A DNA stretch of 45,464 nucleotides, taken from NCBI RefSeq assembly GCF_009547075.1, contig NZ_WIPH01000019.1, forward strand, positions 1 through 45,464, written 5' to 3'. This DNA is from Gluconobacter aidae. GTDB taxonomy: Bacteria; Pseudomonadota; Alphaproteobacteria; Acetobacterales; Acetobacteraceae. Position numbers and translations under genes: made by a program. The notes beneath the pieces were generated by a model that was given only the letters and a program-made list of their open reading frames with translations, searched no databases and was not told where the DNA came from. Each line of letters begins with the position of its first letter. Positions within the stretch are counted from its first letter, which is position 1. Of this stretch, positions 22,978 through 33,095 are shown in pieces.

Positions 22978-23871
22978 TCAAACCGCATCTAGATGTCGTC
23001 CGACAAACTCTGCGGACGAATCCCAAGCCTTTTTTATGACCCCATTGTCAGGGTCTTTGTACCACGCTTGTCCCCAAGTATTTTGCATATTCCATTCCCA
23101 TGCCACAGTTTCACCCTCCCGGAAATGGATTTGAGTGCTTGGAAAGATGCGAAAACTCTTAACCATGCCGCCGGCTGAAGTTGTCTCAAGGATTACTCCT
23201 TTCGCATTGGCTATTGGTATGAGGCAGTCTTTATCGCGGAAGAGATTGACTCCGGAATGGAAAACAACATTCGTCTCCTTTGGCAACGCGTTAAGTGCGC
23301 GTAGAATTGTAAGGCCAGAATCAAGCGCGCTGACCGCGTCGTCATCGGTGGCGGTCTTGCCATGGACGATTTTGTTTCTGACGTCCATGAAGAGCCTTAC
23401 CGAACCTATTAAATTAGGCGGAAACCCGTAAGCACCAAGCTCTCTGAGTGCCTCAGTTATCGCGACGTGCCGCCGATCTTTTAGAAGTCCTCTCACTGCA
23501 AGCTCCTGCCGTGCTTGCTTCTCCAATTCAGCCGAAAGTGCAATTAGAGCCAGCTTTGGGGTAACTTTCGCTTGGTCGAGAATCGTGGCAACTATAGCCT
23601 CAAATTTCTCCTCTTTCTCATCAGATCGTTCTGGTGGAGGCGCCGAAACTTGCATATCGCCTACTCTCGCCTCGAAACTGGCGGCTGATGCTGAAGCCTG
23701 AAGTTCCTGAAGCTCCTCACGTAGCTCAATTTTCTGACCAAATAGCTCGGCTTTTGAAAGACGTCCAAGTGCACTAATGATGCCTGAACGAAGAACGAAT
23801 AGGGCAGTGAATGCAAACCCTGCCCACGCCACAGAAGCAACAGCTTGTAAAATTGGCGCAATATTTTCCAT
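22978..23871 (-). CDS. Membrane-anchored protein with HEPN-like motif
   Basis: A 297-residue protein, family not recognised. Residues 5-28 form one hydrophobic segment (AVASVAWAGFAFTALFVL), followed by a charged coiled-coil-like stretch (about 38-66), a Pro/Glu-rich linker, and a helical domain with RNKIVH at 165-170, again fitting R-N-x3-H. The C-terminal ~100 residues look beta-rich. It converges on the zinc-ribbon HEPN protein. A membrane-tethered RNase-like effector is possible, but such R-N-x3-H motifs also occur in uncharacterised helical domains without known activity. Confidence 0.55.
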   Translation of the reverse strand: MENIAPILQAVASVAWAGFAFTALFVLRSGIISALGRLSKAELFGQKIELREELQELQASASAASFEARVGDMQVSAPPPERSDEKEEKFEAIVATILDQAKVTPKLALIALSAELEKQARQELAVRGLLKDRRHVAITEALRELGAYGFPPNLIGSVRLFMDVRNKIVHGKTATDDDAVSALDSGLTILRALNALPKETNVVFHSGVNLFRDKDCLIPIANAKGVILETTSAGGMVKSFRIFPSTQIHFREGETVAWEWNMQNTWGQAWYKDPDNGVIKKAWDSSAEFVGRHLDAV

Positions 23872-24313: not shown

Positions 24314-27300
24314 CTATGAGGCGTAGACAACACCTAGTACGAGGCGAGCATTGATCATTACAGGTAAGTCTGGTGCCCCTTCTACTCGCTCGGTTGCGAG
24401 AACAACGGAGGCTCCGAGCCCACCGATCGTCTCGAACTGCCGGAGATATGGCAGACTCCTCGATAGCGGCGCGCCGATTCGCTTCAGGATGCTGTCACCG
24501 TCTTCTAGAGTGACAGCGACCATTTCGCCTTCCATGGCGTCCAGCTGATCTGGAGTCAGAACCGCTCCACCAAGGATGATCTGCCCCGGCATCACGCGGG
24601 GGACGGCGCTTTCTTCGCGGACGCGATACGCAATCTCGACTCGCCCAAGGGCGGGATGTCCTTCGAGGAGAAACGCCTCTTCCCGCCCCGCCGGCGGAGG
24701 GGCCTGAACGAACAGAGCTCCAACGACGCGATGCAAGTCGAGTTCATGATTCTCGAAAGCCAGCGTTGGCCGACCACCACGAGGGTCTATCGCTTCAGCG
24801 GCCAGGGAGTATCCCTCGCCGTTGCGCGGACGCAGCAGCCTGCGAGCGAAGGCTTGCGTCCCGCGGCGGCCAATAACCAGCTCATGATCGGCCGGCGAAG
24901 AAGGCGTGGCCTCAACGATCGCGATGGATCCGGCTGGGATTGTGAAGCCCATGGTATCCCTGCGGACGTAAAACAGCGACTTGTCATCAAACCACTGGCT
25001 GGAGAGCATCTCCAAGCTGCCATCCTGGCTGCCACCGCTCGGAACGTGCCTGCTAAACGCAGCAATGTCCTGAACGATCGGGACGTTGAACGCTGGTGCG
25101 GTAACGACAGCCAGAGGTACGACATTGTCCAGGAGAGCCTCCTGAAGCGGCTCCCGCCAACGATAGCGCCGGAATTCCTCGTGGACTCGTTCAACAGCCG
25201 AGCGCAATCGCTTCAGGTCCGCATCAACGTTCTGCACGTCGATGTAGCTCAAAGCGTTGGCGTCGCGGTGATGGGCTTGGTTGAGCACTCGTCGCGGCTC
25301 AGCACCATCGGCCAATGCAGGATCATCGCAGAAGCGCGAGAGTATTGGGCTTCTGAATAGTTCGTTGCTGCGAGCGGTGACCAATGAACGGAGACGCCCC
25401 ATCAGCGGCATCAACGTCGGCGCGTCAGTGGGCGCCGAAAACGCGGGATAAGCTGGATCGTCGAACAAGTCCCCGAGGCGGGCCTCCAAGAAGATACGAG
25501 CCTGATTCGCATAGTCCTGCGCGTGAGCTGCCGAGTCCGGGTTCGAGAGGAATTCGTTCCTCTTCCGATCCAAGTCCTCGATAGCCAGAGAAGTTTCGAG
25601 GGTGCTACGAGATGCGTGCACCGGATGGACGGCCCTGTGCTCAACACGATTGGTACCCCGAGCCTCAGCGACGAGGATCCGGCCGAAGCTACGGTCGTAG
25701 GTGGTCGCCAAAACCTGAGCTCCATCAGCCGCCAGCTGATCTAGGGCACGCGCCAGACGAGCGCGATTGTCATAGTCTAGGAGATCTTGGGGATCATCCA
25801 AGATCATGAGCGACAGGCCGCCATCCGTCCGGAGGACATGTTCTCGGAATGCGAGGTAAAAGCCCATGAGTGACGCTCTCAGAGCCGAAGCGTTCGAAAC
25901 ATGTTGGGCAGGCGCATGAACGCCCTCGCGTCCCACTTGGATTGCAATTGCTCCTTGGGGCGTCATCCCGGTTCGATGCGGTTTGGGCGATAGGGTCGTC
26001 GCGTTCTGGTAAATCGCGTTCCGCCAAAATTCCGCTCGATCATGCAAGCGGGCCTGCAAGCCTTCGACCTGCGCGGTGGCAAGATCGCCGATGGGAATGA
26101 TTTCATCCAGTGCCGCCGCGGCCGTCCCGCAGTCTTCGATCGCTTTCAGCTTGCGCTTATGGGCGGTCTGAGCAGTATTTATTCGCTTCGATAGGTCGAT
26201 GGCTGCACTGATGGGCGCAACGCCCTTCACGATGGCATCGAGGCGTAACAGCTGAGATCGCAGGCCTGTCGCCCGACCGTCGCCTCCATCGGCTTTGCCG
26301 CGGACTTCTTCAAGCGCCGCAGCAAGTTCCGCTCGGTGGGCCGTCATCCAATCGACAAATGCCAAAGCCCGGATAAGGCGGTTCAACGTCTTGCTCAGCT
26401 TAGCCGCGTGGACACCAACTCGGCTCGGCAGAACTCGCTGCACCGGCTCTGTGAACGAAGGCAGGTCTGCCATCGCCTTATCCGTTAGTGCTTCCACCTT
26501 AGAACGCAGCGAACGAAGGACGCCTGTAAAGCCTTCCGTGCTGAAGAGGTCGTCCAGCCACGCGGTTCGCAAGATTGCACTGGGAGATTCGGGCAGGTCC
26601 TTCTGCAAATCGCGCCGAAGCGTGTCAGGCAGATCGCGGGCCAGCTTGCCGGTCCAGGCCTCGGCCCATTGCGCAACCGTCTTGGAGAGGATTTCGCTGT
26701 CTTCAGCAACCTGGCGAAGATGATCGGCAACAAGCCCGCCAGTCTCGGCGTCGACGACGCCCGAGAGGGAATGACGGCAGACCGCACAATGATCATCATG
26801 GGGCTTCCCATGCTCGCGCATCCAGTCGGTCACGCGTGCGTAGAGCTGGGTTCGGCGCTCCAGCACCGGGTTCGCCGAGAGCTCTTCGAGGGCCGTCGCC
26901 TCCTCGAACATACGATCGATGAGGTCGTCCACCTCTTGGCGAGCGTCGGCCTCCAGCTTGAGAGCAACCAGCCTTTCCATTGATGGGAGCTGCGACAAGC
27001 GGCGCACCTGCTCTAGCGCAGGGGCGATGCATTGCTCCAAGCTCTGCCGCTGCGATTCCTCTGAAGCGTCAAACGTATCGCCAAGAACGTCTCGGGCATG
27101 GGCGAGACCGCTGGCTTTCAGATTCTCGAAATGCTGTCCTAGCGCGATAAACGCAGCCAGCTCATCCGTGATCGCCGGGAGAGCGGTGGCAGGCGCCATC
27201 TCCGAGAATTCGGAAATCCGCTGCTCGAGATCGCTGCGATGCTGCCGATAGTCCGTCTCGATCCGTTCGAGTTCGGTTGTGCGCTCCTTCGTGATGTCCC

Positions 27301-28303
27301 CCGCAATCTTCGTTCTCGCACGCCCAGCGTGCCTTGCCAGGGCTACAAGTTCGGAAAGGCCTGTCAGCTTGGCCACCGCCAGCCCCAACTCCGAGGGGTT
27401 GCCCACCTGAAGATGGGGCAGCAGCCCTGGCATGGTGGTCCCGAGATTGAACGCGATCGGATCGAGGCCAAGATCCGCCGCATTGGGCCCGATCTCTTCC
27501 AGCTTGCCGTTCGTCTTTCGTGACTGCATTCGACGGATCGGCGGAAGGCGGGTCCCATCCTCCCGTTCGAAGGTTAGCTCAACCCAAGTATCCGCTGGGA
27601 CAGTTTTAGCTGATGCCGCAGGCGTCCAGTGCTGGGCGCTCGGCAGGGGAGTCACCGCGCTGATCTTGTGCTGCGACGCCTCTTCAGTAGTCCCGCGATC
27701 GATCTCGCAGTCGAATTCGGCTTCGCCGCTTTCGGGCAGGCGTTGAGGCCGAAGCAGCTTACCGGTGAGACACCAGATCACCGAATTCATCAAGCTTGTC
27801 TTGCCCGACCCGTTCCAACCTTCAAATACCGTGATGGGGCTGTTCGGTTCGAACACGAAATCCGTGCTCGGCTCGTCTGCGGACCCGTAGGCATGGAGCC
27901 CTGCGAACCTATGTGCGACGATCTTCGCCAGCCTAAGAACTCGGCGCTCCCGATCTGCGGAAGCGGAAGGAGGCGGCACTTGGACTGGGGTAGCGTTGAT
28001 GCTGGCTATGATCGCTTCGCAGTCAGGCGTCATTACATTGCGAGCCCACTTGGAGCGCGCGCCGCGATACCAGGACAGCACGCCTCGAGCGGCATCGCTA
28101 CCGAGCACCAGCCGGTGGCCCTCATCTGTGGCGATCGGACGTCCGGAAACCAGCTCAGCAAGAAGCAGGTCAGTAGTGAGCAAGTGAAGTGCGCGAACGG
28201 GAGTCACGCCTGACAAATCTGCATCCGAATCAGTCAATTGTGCGCCCCCTAATCCTTGGGTCAGTGTAGTCTCCGGTTGACTCCGCATCATCTGCGAACT
28301 CAA
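24314..28303 (-). CDS. Rad50/SMC-like ATPase with tandem S24 (LexA)-like C-terminal domains
   Basis: A 1329-residue ATPase. After a ~125-residue N-terminal extension comes Walker A (WNGSGKTS, 163-170), a long helical region with a zinc-hook-like CAVC (506-509), and Walker B (SLMILDDPQD, 831-840) preceded by a poorly conserved signature segment. From about 1108 the sequence resembles LexA/S24 peptidases twice. The first copy (YVRRDTMGFTIPAGSIAIV) has Thr1117 and Arg1154 where the Ser and Lys should be, 37 residues apart as in LexA. The second (VREESAVPRVMPGQIILGG) keeps Ser1232 and Lys1274. The start is TTG at 28303; ATG 28291 is an alternative. It lies 33 nt after the nuclease gene in one operon. 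The ATPase assignment is firm; the peptidase-like reading rests on pattern only. Confidence 0.75.
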   Translation of the reverse strand: MSSQMMRSQPETTLTQGLGGAQLTDSDADLSGVTPVRALHLLTTDLLLAELVSGRPIATDEGHRLVLGSDAARGVLSWYRGARSKWARNVMTPDCEAIIASINATPVQVPPPSASADRERRVLRLAKIVAHRFAGLHAYGSADEPSTDFVFEPNSPITVFEGWNGSGKTSLMNSVIWCLTGKLLRPQRLPESGEAEFDCEIDRGTTEEASQHKISAVTPLPSAQHWTPAASAKTVPADTWVELTFEREDGTRLPPIRRMQSRKTNGKLEEIGPNAADLGLDPIAFNLGTTMPGLLPHLQVGNPSELGLAVAKLTGLSELVALARHAGRARTKIAGDITKERTTELERIETDYRQHRSDLEQRISEFSEMAPATALPAITDELAAFIALGQHFENLKASGLAHARDVLGDTFDASEESQRQSLEQCIAPALEQVRRLSQLPSMERLVALKLEADARQEVDDLIDRMFEEATALEELSANPVLERRTQLYARVTDWMREHGKPHDDHCAVCRHSLSGVVDAETGGLVADHLRQVAEDSEILSKTVAQWAEAWTGKLARDLPDTLRRDLQKDLPESPSAILRTAWLDDLFSTEGFTGVLRSLRSKVEALTDKAMADLPSFTEPVQRVLPSRVGVHAAKLSKTLNRLIRALAFVDWMTAHRAELAAALEEVRGKADGGDGRATGLRSQLLRLDAIVKGVAPISAAIDLSKRINTAQTAHKRKLKAIEDCGTAAAALDEIIPIGDLATAQVEGLQARLHDRAEFWRNAIYQNATTLSPKPHRTGMTPQGAIAIQVGREGVHAPAQHVSNASALRASLMGFYLAFREHVLRTDGGLSLMILDDPQDLLDYDNRARLARALDQLAADGAQVLATTYDRSFGRILVAEARGTNRVEHRAVHPVHASRSTLETSLAIEDLDRKRNEFLSNPDSAAHAQDYANQARIFLEARLGDLFDDPAYPAFSAPTDAPTLMPLMGRLRSLVTARSNELFRSPILSRFCDDPALADGAEPRRVLNQAHHRDANALSYIDVQNVDADLKRLRSAVERVHEEFRRYRWREPLQEALLDNVVPLAVVTAPAFNVPIVQDIAAFSRHVPSGGSQDGSLEMLSSQWFDDKSLFYVRRDTMGFTIPAGSIAIVEATPSSPADHELVIGRRGTQAFARRLLRPRNGEGYSLAAEAIDPRGGRPTLAFENHELDLHRVVGALFVQAPPPAGREEAFLLEGHPALGRVEIAYRVREESAVPRVMPGQIILGGAVLTPDQLDAMEGEMVAVTLEDGDSILKRIGAPLSRSLPYLRQFETIGGLGASVVLATERVEGAPDLPVMINARLVLGVVYAS

Positions 28304-28336: not shown

Positions 28337-29491
28337 TTACTCTTGGCCAAACAAGTTGGCTTGCGGCGGCACGTCCTTTTCGACCTCTTCCGTCATTGCA
28401 TGGGCGGAGGCGGTGGCCGTAACGGGGTCCGCCTTCCAAGCATTCGCGAAGCGCTCGCGATCAACATTTGCATAGTCGAGGAGCGCACCGAGCATTGACT
28501 TGGTGTGGACGCTGAGGCCGTCGAACGTCGGCAGTGCGACGTGATAGCTTGCCATCTCCAGCTCCCGCCCGGTCATGAAAAGCTGATCCGACTTCAGAAG
28601 GCGGACGGCTTGATCTGCGACAATCTCAGCCGGGATTTGGTCCAAGTCACGCTTCAGCCCCGCCTCAACTGCGGTCGCAGTGCCGCGACCGCCGGGGGCG
28701 TATTTCTCGACTAGCGCCATCGCCAAGCGAAGCGTTTGCTGACCATTATCGTCGCCTAAGGCTCCGAGCCGCACGGCCCGTAGGATCAGGTCGCGCCTTT
28801 CGTCAATTGTTCGGAACGCTGCACCCACGCTAACATAATCGAGGCTCTGGCAGACAATAGCCCCGGCGAGATATGCTAGGCGGCCAGCCGAGCGAGCGGC
28901 CTGTGAATCTGGATGGTATGCAACGGCGGTTGTCGCTAACCGTGAGAAACCTTCCAGAGCTCTGACAGCCGATGGAGCGCCAAATCCCTCGGAGAGCGCC
29001 GACAGGATGTCTAAGCGCGCATCCTGTAGGTTCTTGTTTCGGAAGCTCTTATCGACCGCCTGCAATTCGGCGATCAGTTGCTCATCACTCCTTCGGTCCG
29101 GGTAGAGAACGGACTGACTATTCTGAATGCGCTGAATGTCCGTGCCGTCGATCAGCTGCAGATTGAGCTTTTCCGCCACAGAACGCAGGCTTTTCCGCTT
29201 GTCGGTCGTTGCAACATAAGCCCCGTCAACATCGAGCGCATCGGCTAGTCCGCTCGTCCAAAAGATGCGCTCAACAGCCTTCGGGCGTTGCTTGTATTTG
29301 ATGTCGCAAATCTGCACCCGGCGAGAAGTTCCCGTGGGACGTTCATACAACCAAAGGTCGACGTCGGTGAGATCTTCGTCCGCAAATCGAAATGGGACAC
29401 CGCGAATGACGAAGAAACCAGCGCGCAGGAAGTAGGCGCGCAGCACCTCTTCCAACACGGCCCCCTTGGGCGTTTGTACCTTGTCGCTCAT
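28337..29491 (-). CDS. PD-(D/E)XK nuclease-like protein
   Basis: A 384-residue protein. Its first 100 residues fit a restriction-endonuclease-like fold: Glu14/Glu15 (GAVLEEVLRAYF), Asp45 (LTDVDLW) and Asp63-x-Lys65 (CDIKYK), then YVATTDKRKSLRSVAEKL. The rest is helical, with no motif I recognise. The ATG at 29491 overlaps the stop of the upstream gene (TGATG), so translation is coupled; an in-frame GTG lies one codon earlier. Together with the ATPase it forms a candidate nuclease effector/sensor pair. Whether it cuts host, invading or no DNA cannot be told from sequence. Confidence 0.68.
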   Translation of the reverse strand: MSDKVQTPKGAVLEEVLRAYFLRAGFFVIRGVPFRFADEDLTDVDLWLYERPTGTSRRVQICDIKYKQRPKAVERIFWTSGLADALDVDGAYVATTDKRKSLRSVAEKLNLQLIDGTDIQRIQNSQSVLYPDRRSDEQLIAELQAVDKSFRNKNLQDARLDILSALSEGFGAPSAVRALEGFSRLATTAVAYHPDSQAARSAGRLAYLAGAIVCQSLDYVSVGAAFRTIDERRDLILRAVRLGALGDDNGQQTLRLAMALVEKYAPGGRGTATAVEAGLKRDLDQIPAEIVADQAVRLLKSDQLFMTGRELEMASYHVALPTFDGLSVHTKSMLGALLDYANVDRERFANAWKADPVTATASAHAMTEEVEKDVPPQANLFGQE

Positions 29492-30762
29492 CACAGCACA
29501 CGCCCGCCGCGAACGGCCTCTAGCACATCCCTTGTCGCCCGCTTGCTCAACGGGGATTGGCTCTTGCGAACCGAGGTGCGGCTTTCTTCGGGACCGATGT
29601 ATCCCGCCATCGGCGCGCTGGGCAGATCCGCGAGAGATTGGGCATAGGCGTTGCCTTGGGTGAGCACCTGCAACGCGAGCTCGCCTACCTCCCTCTTGAG
29701 CAGTCGCAGATAGTACCGATTGGCGTAGTTCGCGTCCCGCCTGAGCTTTACGACGCCGTTGACCTCAAGAACCCGATAGTCCTGTCCGATGGAGGTCGTT
29801 GGGCCGACGTCGCGGCCAGAAATCAGCTTGTTCACGAGAGCAGGCAGCTGGGTGATCCGGCCTTGGGAGGATGAGCGAGAAAGCATGCCATAGGTGAGCG
29901 CCGCCACCAGCGATTTCGCCATGTCGAAGCAATCATCCACCATGGGGTCGACAAATTTGTGAAAGGCGGCGGGTGCGGTGACATAGACGTGGCTGCCCTG
30001 TTCGTTCGTGACCTCGTTGAGGTCATAGACGGCTGCCGCAACCAGCTTCTCAAAGAGCGGCTTCGACAAAACGTGCTCAACGTGCTGGACACTCAGACAT
30101 CCGCTCTTGGATAGCTGCTCGGCGATCTCGCTGACCAAGCGCTGTTCAGCATCGTTCAGCGAGGCCAGCACTTTCTGGGTTTTAACGACGGACGAGCGGC
30201 GGAACAGGTTGCCGTTGAACAACAGCCGATCGTTGCCATCACCTTCTTTATCGACAAACCCAATACCCTCGGCACGGTCGAGGAAGTCGCCGGCCTGAGC
30301 ATTGGTGAGCTTGTGGGTATCGCCAATCCGTTGGGAGACATCGGAGCGTCGGATTGGCGCTTCCGAGGCGATTTCCGCCAACGTGATCGACGCTTCTTCG
30401 TAGGTGCTCGGCTCCGCCTCGTTGTAGATATCGGTAGCATGACCGAGCGAGCCGCGCGTGGTGACGCCCAAGATCGAGATGTCCTTGGTGGACTGATCGA
30501 TCAGGCGCTTGCGTTCAAGCACCTGGAGGAGCCCGTTCAACTCCAGCCGGGGGTCGAGCCCAGATGCGACGGCGATAGCGCGCGCCTCGACCTTGGTGAC
30601 GGTAGCCTGATTTGTTTGGCCGAGCTTCGTTAGTAGCGTCGCGGCCTTTGCCGCTTCGTTGATAGCAGGAAACTCCGCTGGCCCGTTCACGTCCAGAACG
30701 AGCTTGCGGCCGTGGTGGATCACCCAGGCGCCCTTGAGTTCCTTTTCGCTCGCCGTAGTCAT
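29491..30762 (-). CDS. Winged-helix-like first component of the three-gene ATPase operon
   Basis: A 423-residue protein, family not recognised. Several helical stretches look like winged helices: VEARAIAVASGLDPRLEL with LLQVLERKRLIDQ (about 58-90), and IASEAPIRRSDVSQRIGD with DFLDRAEGIGFVD (about 130-175). The C-terminal part is rich in Arg and Tyr (DANYANRYYLRLLKREVG). The start at 30762 has GGGGA just upstream; an in-frame TTG at 30813 adds 17 residues but has no better signal. It is the first gene of the operon and likely supplies DNA binding, regulation or a bridging subunit. That role is an inference. Confidence 0.55.
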   Translation of the reverse strand: MTTASEKELKGAWVIHHGRKLVLDVNGPAEFPAINEAAKAATLLTKLGQTNQATVTKVEARAIAVASGLDPRLELNGLLQVLERKRLIDQSTKDISILGVTTRGSLGHATDIYNEAEPSTYEEASITLAEIASEAPIRRSDVSQRIGDTHKLTNAQAGDFLDRAEGIGFVDKEGDGNDRLLFNGNLFRRSSVVKTQKVLASLNDAEQRLVSEIAEQLSKSGCLSVQHVEHVLSKPLFEKLVAAAVYDLNEVTNEQGSHVYVTAPAAFHKFVDPMVDDCFDMAKSLVAALTYGMLSRSSSQGRITQLPALVNKLISGRDVGPTTSIGQDYRVLEVNGVVKLRRDANYANRYYLRLLKREVGELALQVLTQGNAYAQSLADLPSAPMAGYIGPEESRTSVRKSQSPLSKRATRDVLEAVRGGRVL

Positions 30763-31082
30763 AGATTCCCCGCGTGTCTGGCTGGTAAGCAGCCATGGCG
30801 GAGGGCTGACCAACTTGCTTGCCCTAAAAGTAGCGCATACCGCCGGCGTGATCCAGCGTGCCCGCCCTTATTGGGCGCGTTGCCATCGGGTGGGTTTGCG
30901 CGATGGGAATGGCAGGTTTCAGCACGAGCGGTCGTTCACGCCCCGGCCGCTGAAGGTCCTGAGTTGGTCGGTAGCTGTCATGAACGTGAACACTGCGAAT
31001 GGCGGCTTTCGGTCATCCCTTCCCAATAACCGACATCCCGCTTTCCCCCCAAAGCTGACAAGCTTCTCCTCACCAGCACCAG
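30763..31082. other. Gene-free segment upstream of the three-gene ATPase operon
   Basis: This gap must hold the promoter of the minus-strand operon, though no clear -35/-10 pair was recognised. CGCCC-TTATT-GGGCG near 30868-30882 is a short perfect hairpin. AATGGCGGCTTTCGGTCATC (30998-31017) resembles, in inverted orientation, the motif at 24093-24113 beyond the far end of the operon. The + strand ORFs here are shadows without ribosome binding sites. Confidence 0.45.
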
Positions 31083-32393: not shown

Positions 32394-32456
32394 ATGCCTC
32401 ATTTCCGAATGAGGACCCTCTGCGTGCCCCGACATTCCAGGCGAAAGCGTAAACTC

Positions 32457-33095
32457 ATGGACGACCAGATCCGCGTGATGCGCGAGCGCGGCGAGCGCCT
32501 CCGCGAAGCGGCCCAGAGTATTGGCATCACCCATGCCGCCAAGGCAGCGGGCGTGCCGTATACGACCCTGAGGGATTACATGAATGGCGGGGAGATGAAA
32601 TTCTCCGCCCTTGCGTCACTGGCCCGGGTTTGCGGCGTGTCCCTGGACTGGATCGCTTTTGGCACGGCTGGCGGCTCACCTTCCGGGGTGACAGCGGTCC
32701 AGACCACCTCGACGCGTCAGATCGTCGTGCCCTGGTATGATCATCATGAAGATGGCCTGCGGATTGGTCGTGACTGGTTGCAGAGCGTCATTCCCCGGGA
32801 CCTCACGTCCCTCTGCCTCATCAGCAATGCAGGGGATGCGATGGAGTCGACGTTGTCCTCAGGCGATCTGGTCATCGTAGATCGAAGCATCACGACCGTG
32901 ACGGGCAGCGCGCTCTATGCCCTGGAGAGCGCTGGCGCCGTCCTGATCCGTCGCCTTGATCCCAAACTCGGTGGCGGGGTCCGGGTGATTGCTGACAATC
33001 ACCGCTATCCGCCCCAGGACGTCGAGGCTGATCGTCTGGACTGCTTCAAACTGCTCGGCGAAGTGGTCTGGATCGGCGGCGTGCCTCATCCCTGA
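32457..33095 (+). CDS. HTH/S24-type repressor lacking the catalytic dyad
   Basis: A 212-residue phage-repressor-like regulator. Residues 10-66 form a helix-turn-helix (THAAKAAGVPYTTLRDYMNG, then LASLARVCGVSLDWIAFG). Residues 90-210 match the S24/LexA dimerisation-peptidase fold. The catalytic Ser is Ala128 (GDAMESTL) and the catalytic Lys is Arg165 (LIRRLD). Their 37-residue separation equals that of Ser119 and Lys156 in LexA, so the alignment is credible. Self-cleavage after DNA damage is therefore not expected. ATG 32457 was chosen because the domain starts there; the frame is open upstream to 32394. It probably represses its own gene and neighbouring promoters. Confidence 0.78.
   Translation: MDDQIRVMRERGERLREAAQSIGITHAAKAAGVPYTTLRDYMNGGEMKFSALASLARVCGVSLDWIAFGTAGGSPSGVTAVQTTSTRQIVVPWYDHHEDGLRIGRDWLQSVIPRDLTSLCLISNAGDAMESTLSSGDLVIVDRSITTVTGSALYALESAGAVLIRRLDPKLGGGVRVIADNHRYPPQDVEADRLDCFKLLGEVVWIGGVPHP

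What the first reader, a model, noticed from the sequence alone, without database searches (positions are those of the whole stretch)
24314..24982. Tandem LexA/S24-like domains at the end of the SMC-type ATPase
Residues 1108-1198 and about 1210-1329 each follow the S24 pattern. The first has Thr1117/Arg1154 in place of Ser/Lys, with LexA spacing of exactly 37. The second keeps Ser1232 and Lys1274 (42 apart). A damage- or DNA-end-sensing ATPase with a self-cleaving tail would give a switch: ATPase engagement could trigger cleavage that releases the nuclease.
Basis: partly seen in the sequence, partly recalled or inferred. Interest (0 to 1): 0.85.

Follow-up and report, generated by a model that had tools for sequence, protein, structure and literature searches.

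The report
DNA-sensing ATPase with LexA-like tail
A bacterial defence-type ATPase of the Rad50 kind ends in two LexA-like protease domains, one dead and one whose active-site pair is unchanged in distant relatives, which suggests a built-in cutting switch that has not been tested here.

Summary
The tandem S24 tail is real. Window ORF 24314-28303(-) encodes a 1329-residue Rad50/LmuB-like ATPase. Profile comparison puts both tail domains with S24 proteins: domain 1 E 6.9e-9, domain 2 E 8.6e-8, with 0 of 60 shuffled controls near either. Ser1232 and Lys1274 are invariant in 20 of 20 sequences, window included; the 20 tails form 12 clusters at 60% identity. Domain 1 never has the Lys (0 of 19). 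It keeps an Ala at LexA's cut position (20 of 20) but never the Gly after it (0 of 20). So a dead LexA-like domain is followed by a live-looking one on a DNA-sensing-type ATPase. 'Releases the nuclease' fails: the neighbouring nuclease-like gene belongs to a separate pair (5 of 5 other loci), absent from 22 ATPase relatives' loci. Best reading: a defence or DNA-surveillance ATPase with a proteolytic switch in its tail. The dyad is shown by conservation; cleavage, substrate and trigger are inferred. No listed paper in my searches described this architecture.

The parts
24314..28303 (-). Gene for the 1329-aa Rad50/LmuB-like ATPase with LexA-like tail (TTG start as listed; matches to most close relatives begin near residue 20, so the Met codons at residues 5-6 may be the true start)
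   Evidence: PADLOC LmuB 5.9e-15, matched by 14 of 14 in A5; Rad50 chains in PDB
27929..28246 (-). N-terminal stretch, residues 20-125, of unknown fold
   Evidence: A7 alignment of 13 sequences
27797..27820 (-). Walker A, GWNGSGKT, residues 162-169
   Evidence: G162, N164, G165, G167, K168 invariant in 14 of 14
26777..26788 (-). Zinc-hook-type CxxC, residues 506-509
   Evidence: C506 and C509 invariant in 14 of 14
25787..25816 (-). Walker B ending DDPQ, residues 830-839
   Evidence: D836 D837 P838 Q839 invariant in 14 of 14
25124..25651 (-). Helical stretch, residues 885-1060, with NxxxH (N1008, H1012); no family match
   Evidence: no Pfam match better than E 0.12 and no PDB match better than E 0.39
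25055..25078 (-). LexA cut-site-like loop IVQDIAAF (residues 1076-1083); A1082 aligns with the LexA P1 Ala
   Evidence: hhalign; Ala in 20 of 20, following Gly in 0 of 20
24710..25051 (-). S24 domain 1 (residues 1085-1198), degenerate: T1117 and R1154 at the Ser and Lys positions
24317..24709 (-). S24 domain 2 (residues 1199-1329) with invariant S1232 (24608-24610) and K1274 (24482-24484)
28337..29494 (-). 385-aa protein, PD-(D/E)XK-like by eye only; part of a separate two-gene module, not a conserved partner
29491..30813 (-). 440-aa protein, other half of the two-gene module

Best explanation
This is a Rad50/LmuB-like ABC ATPase, without a conserved partner gene, that carries its own LexA-type regulatory tail and sits among defence genes and on plasmids. 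Shown: Rad50-like head with a CxxC hook motif; two S24-type domains; domain 1 lost its dyad; domain 2 keeps an invariant Ser/Lys dyad. Inferred: the ATPase senses abnormal DNA (ends, hairpins, or filaments on them). Domain 1, a dead LexA-like domain whose cut position resembles non-cleavable LexA, acts as a docking or dimer surface. Domain 2 uses S1232/K1274 to cut a peptide bond when the complex is engaged, most likely in its own or its partner's tail or linkers, which irreversibly separates tail from ATPase and switches its activity. The effector is unknown; no nuclease partner is conserved.
For: S1232 and K1274 invariant in 20 of 20 and, in a full-length alignment of 14, as fixed as Walker A, Walker B and the hook cysteines. 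In domain 2 only S1232, P1235, K1274, R1275 and G1324 are invariant across 20 rows, which fits the S24 signature as I recall it. Both domains fit an S24 alignment far above controls; the domain 1 profile hits LexA and UmuD in the PDB (16 of 17 hits at E up to 1, best 4.1e-4). Rad50 and LmuB relationship. Varied surroundings with no shared neighbour in more than 5 of 22 loci, among them Shango, CBASS and Shedu genes (ten hand-picked neighbours).
Against: No canonical cut site is conserved. No usable structure model. The domain 2 profile alone found no S24 chain in the PDB at E up to 1, and Pfam S24 matched only 4 of 20 domain-2 sequences even at E up to 1. No SOS box within 400 bases upstream in the window and no exact one in 21 upstream regions. 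No functional data.
Confidence: 0.5

Rival explanations
1. Domain 2 is a protease that acts in trans on another protein (a phage or plasmid S24 repressor, host LexA or UmuD, or an effector), so the tail is the effector rather than a self-switch.
For: No partner gene is conserved, so some effector must be built in or be a host protein; the dyad is invariant yet no self-cleavage site is conserved.
Against: LexA-family peptidases mostly cut themselves or close kin (recalled); no substrate is indicated by the neighbourhood.
Confidence: 0.22
2. The tail is a RecA-filament or dimerisation sensor; the dyad is kept for binding and does little or no cutting.
For: Domain 1 resembles non-cleavable LexA (dead dyad, no Gly after the cut-position Ala); LexA G85D binds RecA* but is not cleaved (PMC6363387, passages).
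Against: A pure binding role does not explain why both Ser and Lys of domain 2 are invariant while domain 1 drifted.
Confidence: 0.2
3. The ATPase, the 385-aa nuclease-like protein and the 440-aa protein form one Lamassu-like three-gene system, and tail cleavage releases the nuclease.
For: The three genes are adjacent on one strand in the window; the 385-aa gene's stop is 33 bases before the listed ATPase start.
Against: The pair occurs without the ATPase in the 5 other loci examined; neither gene was found in 22 loci with ATPase relatives; no LmuA or LmuC match.
Confidence: 0.06

Closest known systems
Lamassu / ABC-3C, LmuB subunit
   Same: Rad50-like ABC ATPase with CxxC hook motif; PADLOC LmuB model PDLC03859 matches 14 of 14
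   Different: About 1300 aa rather than about 650 (size of LmuB from PMC10586767 passages); extra N-terminal, helical and two S24 stretches; no LmuA or LmuC match among the window neighbours scanned
LexA (peptidase S24)
   Same: Both tail domains align with LexA-type S24; the window's domain 1 has A-35-T-37-R where LexA has A84-35-S119-37-K156; domain 2 has Ser/Lys
   Different: Fused to an ATPase; domain 1 dead; Gly after the cut-position Ala missing; in relatives the domain 1 spacings vary (33-37 and 36-41)
UmuD / phage CI-type S24 proteins
   Same: Ser/Lys dyad; the 42-48 spacing in domain 2 is near that of CI-type repressors (recalled)
   Different: Not a polymerase subunit or repressor; tandem arrangement on an ATPase
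RloC / PrrC (ABC ATPase with C-terminal RNase part; recalled, plus abstract starts in listing)
   Same: Single-protein idea: ABC ATPase with effector or regulatory C-terminus
   Different: Helical stretch has NxxxH but no conserved Arg before it, and no HEPN match

Membership tests
Peptidase S24 (domain 2) | Catalytic Ser and Lys at aligned positions | tested here: met
   20 of 20; aligned to the S24 dyad by hhalign
Peptidase S24 (domain 2) | Sequence-profile match to the family | tested here: met
   hhalign E 8.6e-8, 0 of 60 shuffles; but the Pfam model matches only 4 of 20 members at E up to 1, best 5.5e-5, and the PDB profile search found none
Peptidase S24 (domain 2) | S24 fold with Ser and Lys adjacent in space | tested here: inconclusive
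   AlphaFold pLDDT 36.8
Peptidase S24 (domain 2) | LexA-type Ala-Gly or Cys-Gly cut site before the domain | tested here: not met
   AG or CG 20-60 residues before S1232 in 5 of 20, at scattered positions
Peptidase S24 (domain 2) | Proteolytic activity | not testable with these tools
   needs the bench
Peptidase S24 (domain 1) | Catalytic Ser and Lys | tested here: not met
   Ser position T 11, S 3, N 2, W 1, R 1, A 1; Lys position R 16, G 3, K 0, of 19
Peptidase S24 (domain 1) | Profile match to LexA-type S24 | tested here: met
   PDB LexA 4.1e-4; Pfam 17 of 19 members at E up to 1, best 4.8e-5; hhalign 6.9e-9
Lamassu / ABC-3C system | LmuB-type ABC ATPase | tested here: met
   14 of 14 in A5
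Lamassu / ABC-3C system | Adjacent LmuA effector and usually LmuC | tested here: not met
   no matches among six window neighbours scanned; no neighbour shared by more than 5 of 22 relative loci, and those are Shango genes
Rad50/SbcC | CxxC hook motif and Rad50-type ATPase head | tested here: met
   zinc binding itself not tested
Rad50/SbcC | Mre11/SbcD nuclease partner encoded alongside | tested here: not met
   SbcD-like neighbour in 3 of 22 loci (L033, L037, L040); none seen in the window
HEPN RNase (helical stretch) | RX4-6H motif (recalled) | tested here: not met
   N1008 and H1012 conserved in 14 of 14, the Arg not; no Pfam HEPN match

The most novel reading that the evidence does not exclude
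A split LexA switch inside one chain: domain 1 is a dead LexA that presents a LexA-like loop (invariant Ala1082) and reads out RecA filaments or DNA state, while domain 2 supplies the Ser/Lys dyad that cuts that loop in the same chain or the dimer partner, detaching the tail and arming or disarming a Rad50-like defence ATPase. This would be a DNA-damage protease switch wired directly to an immune ATPase instead of to transcription.
Probability: 0.2. Interest if true: 0.87.

Novelty: new variant of a known kind. Interest (0 to 1): 0.62.

Why it matters
How Rad50/SMC-like defence ATPases of the Lamassu kind are first held inactive and then switched on was described as unclear in a 2023 review (PMC10586767, passages). 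A family in which the ATPase carries its own LexA-type tail, dead domain plus live domain, gives a one-gene system with two single-residue tests (S1232A, K1274A). If true it would extend LexA-type chemistry from repressors and polymerase subunits to a DNA-surveillance ATPase.

Tried and rejected
AlphaFold on residues 870-1329 and on 1190-1329 gave mean pLDDT 36.6 and 36.8; not interpreted, and no fold search was run on them. The tool admits only window and the search for related loci/search_dna proteins, so only 5 close relatives besides the window were aligned.

The PDB profile search with domain 2 alone found 4 unrelated chains at E up to 1.

A HEPN reading of the helical stretch was considered because of NxxxH and rejected for lack of the Arg and of any profile match. 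SOS regulation was considered. In the window as a whole the one-mismatch box is somewhat above chance (52 seen, 37.6 expected, 2 of 100 shuffles as high), but none lies within 400 bases upstream of the ATPase; one-mismatch boxes occur in 5 of 21 upstream regions and no exact one (L021 had no upstream sequence). Dropped.

Literature: searches in the held open-licence library. Searches returned no paper; the others returned lists seen as titles and abstract starts, capped (15 of 217; 15 of 11,667). No listed paper names an SMC/Rad50 ATPase with an S24 tail. In the one hit, 'S24' was a table number. The 2020 ABC ATPase classification paper is not held, so a prior description there is not excluded.

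Rows dropped before counts: L027/G185 and L023/G348 (degenerate tail pieces; in L023 the Lys is followed by His and the Ser region is not readable), L043 (IS630 inside domain 1), G784 and G719 (internal stops), L009/G045 (N-terminal piece). Kept although their genes look broken elsewhere: L040 (its separate domain-2 frame, only), L025/G305 (tail in its own ORF), L026/G057 (N-terminal part in another frame). L002, L003, L004 and L028 are duplicates or near-duplicates of L014 or L013; L011 was used in A1 but not in the 20-row counts. Of 25 plasmid records matching the ATPase, 10 were fetched.

Full report
What was checked. The ORF at 24314-28303 on the minus strand gives 1329 residues. On the single sequence the evidence is thin: Pfam Peptidase_S24 at 1100-1168, E 0.0033, below the curated cut-off, and nothing for the second domain (member 1).

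Relatives. The protein is rare and patchy, own genome counted: 8 of 299 genomes of the order at E up to 1e-20, one of them a tail piece only; 5 of 385 of the class with a tail profile at E up to 1e-5; 4 of 398 of the phylum with the full-length profile at E up to 1e-15, two of them with internal stops. There are 5 loci in genome contigs and 25 of 72,556 plasmid records, 15 of them over at least 80% of the query. Named hosts include Novosphingobium, Novacetimonas and Pseudoroseomonas, Croceicoccus, Methylorubrum, Mesorhizobium, Bradyrhizobium, Azospirillum and one gammaproteobacterium, Pseudomonas veronii. In the nine fetched plasmid records with annotation it is called 'ATP-binding protein' (7) or 'AAA family ATPase' (2).

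Anatomy. In an alignment of 14 full-length proteins, down to 22% identity to the window, the invariant columns include Walker A (G162, N164, G165, G167, K168), a CxxC hook motif (C506, C509), DDPQ at Walker B (836-839), N1008 and H1012 in a helical stretch, and S1232, P1235, K1274, R1275 and G1324 in the tail. The ATPase is Rad50-like (PDB Rad50 chains, best E 5.8e-13). The PADLOC LmuB model PDLC03859 matches all 14, but it is 611 positions long and in the window protein its best stretch ends at residue 882, before the tail.

The tail is two S24 domains. The profile of domain 1 (19 sequences) finds LexA in the PDB at E 4.1e-4, and 16 of the 17 chains listed at E up to 1 are LexA or UmuD; Pfam S24 matches 17 of 19 members at E up to 1, best 4.8e-5. 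Domain 2 is more diverged: Pfam matches 4 of 20 (best 5.5e-5) and its PDB profile search gives only unrelated chains. The profile of the whole tandem finds LexA at E 0.0051, again through domain 1. Profile-profile comparison decides it. Against an alignment of 31 S24 proteins (30 loci plus the window's own repressor), domain 1 scores probability 95.8, E 6.9e-9, and domain 2 probability 94.4, E 8.6e-8, with S1232 on the catalytic Ser and K1274 on the catalytic Lys. None of 60 column shuffles of either alignment came near (best probability 4.7 and 3.7), nor did reversed alignments. The two domains also match each other (probability 84.9, E 6.4e-6), T1117 on S1232 and R1154 on K1274.

Dead and live. 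S1232 and K1274 are invariant in 20 of 20 tails, and again in 20 of 20 in a set that replaces the broken L040 copy by L084. The 20 tails form 12 clusters at 60% identity, so this is not mere closeness. In domain 1 the Ser position is T 11, S 3, N 2, W 1, R 1, A 1, and the Lys position R 16, G 3, K 0, of 19. So the second dyad is held and the first has been released.

The cut site. LexA is cut at Ala84-Gly85 with dyad Ser119/Lys156 (PMC3834820, passages). In the window protein A1082 lies 35 residues before T1117, which lies 37 before R1154: exactly the LexA spacings. Across the 20 sequences the first spacing is 33-37 and the second 36-41. hhalign with a permissive setting aligns PIVQDIAAF with the LexA-type PLYGRIAAG of 29 S24 proteins. 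The Ala is present in 20 of 20, but the next residue is F 10, R 5, H 2, A 1, Q 1, S 1, never G. LexA G85D is non-cleavable yet binds RecA* (PMC6363387, passages). Domain 1 thus looks like a natural non-cleavable LexA; whether domain 2 can cut it despite the missing Gly is open. No other cut site is conserved upstream of S1232: AG or CG in 5 of 20, at scattered positions.

Partners. The 385-aa and 440-aa genes upstream look like an operon with the ATPase in the window. In the 5 other loci examined (L086, L087, L088, L041, L042; 12-16 kb held) they form a pair without the ATPase. tblastn of the window's neighbours against 22 loci with ATPase relatives found none of them, apart from a weak S24-repressor match in L020; flanks held are mostly 4-10 kb but under 500 bases on one side for L011, L013, L021 and L026. 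In an all-against-all comparison of neighbouring ORFs the most widely shared neighbours are Shango genes, in 5 of 22 loci (L010, L011, L014, L028, L035; L014 and L028 are near-duplicates), then SbcC- and SbcD-like genes, 3 of 22 each. Some loci have close same-strand neighbours (L037, L039), so local partners are not excluded, but none is conserved. Ten neighbours that I picked as likely defence genes all matched PADLOC models: Shango (L010, L014, L035), CBASS cyclase and E1-E2 (L012), Shedu (L034) and candidate PDC-S05 (L039); this is a picked sample, not a rate. The window has a type I restriction system (called by eye from the ORFs) and a PDC-S64 match.

Mechanism. Shown: architecture, homology, dyad conservation, no conserved partner. 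Inferred from Rad50 and LmuB knowledge: sensing of abnormal DNA. Inferred from S24 knowledge: cutting of a loop when a conformation or RecA filament favours it. My commitment is a built-in proteolytic switch (0.5), with a trans-protease (0.22) or a non-cutting sensor (0.2) as rivals. The nuclease-release version is disfavoured (0.06).

Limits. Both AlphaFold jobs failed for want of diverse admissible sequences, so the fold claim rests on profiles. The statement that I found no prior description rests on the searches in an open-licence library, some with capped lists; the main ABC ATPase classification paper was not held.

Noticed in passing
window 28337-30813 (-): A two-gene module (440 aa plus 385 aa, the latter PD-(D/E)XK-like by eye) with no Pfam, NCBIfam or clear PADLOC match, found as a pair on Mesorhizobium and Vibrio plasmids and in 3 other genomes of the order; a candidate uncharacterised mobile or defence module.
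   Followed up: partly
window 32394-33095 (+): XRE-S24 repressor (Pfam S24 4.7e-12) with Ala149 and Arg186 at the Ser and Lys positions as judged by eye, 37 apart: another S24 protein that looks catalytically dead.
   Followed up: partly
L010 8002-11578, L014 13483-19438, L035 13210-14892: Shango genes (SngC in all three, SngB in L010 and L014, SngA in L014) lie downstream of the ATPase on the other strand; related ORFs also in L011 and L028. All but L035 belong to one tail cluster or are near-duplicates, so this may be partly inherited.
   Followed up: partly
L033 9895-14111, L037 10019-15040, L040 10020-10652: Plasmid-borne SbcD-like genes, with a second SMC/AAA ATPase in two cases, next to the ATPase in three plasmid loci.
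   Followed up: partly
window 22978-23871 (-): 297-aa protein with a weak Swt1-like HEPN match (E 0.002, below cut-off) downstream of the ATPase; not found in 22 relative loci.
   Followed up: partly
window 25268-25282 (-): NxxxH motif (N1008, H1012) invariant in a helical stretch of no known family between ATPase and tail; possible hidden effector site.
   Followed up: partly
L040 near 9500; L043 8231-9346: Natural breaks in the tail: a frame change between the two S24 domains in Bradyrhizobium barranii and an IS630 insertion inside domain 1 in Rhizobium leguminosarum.
   Followed up: partly
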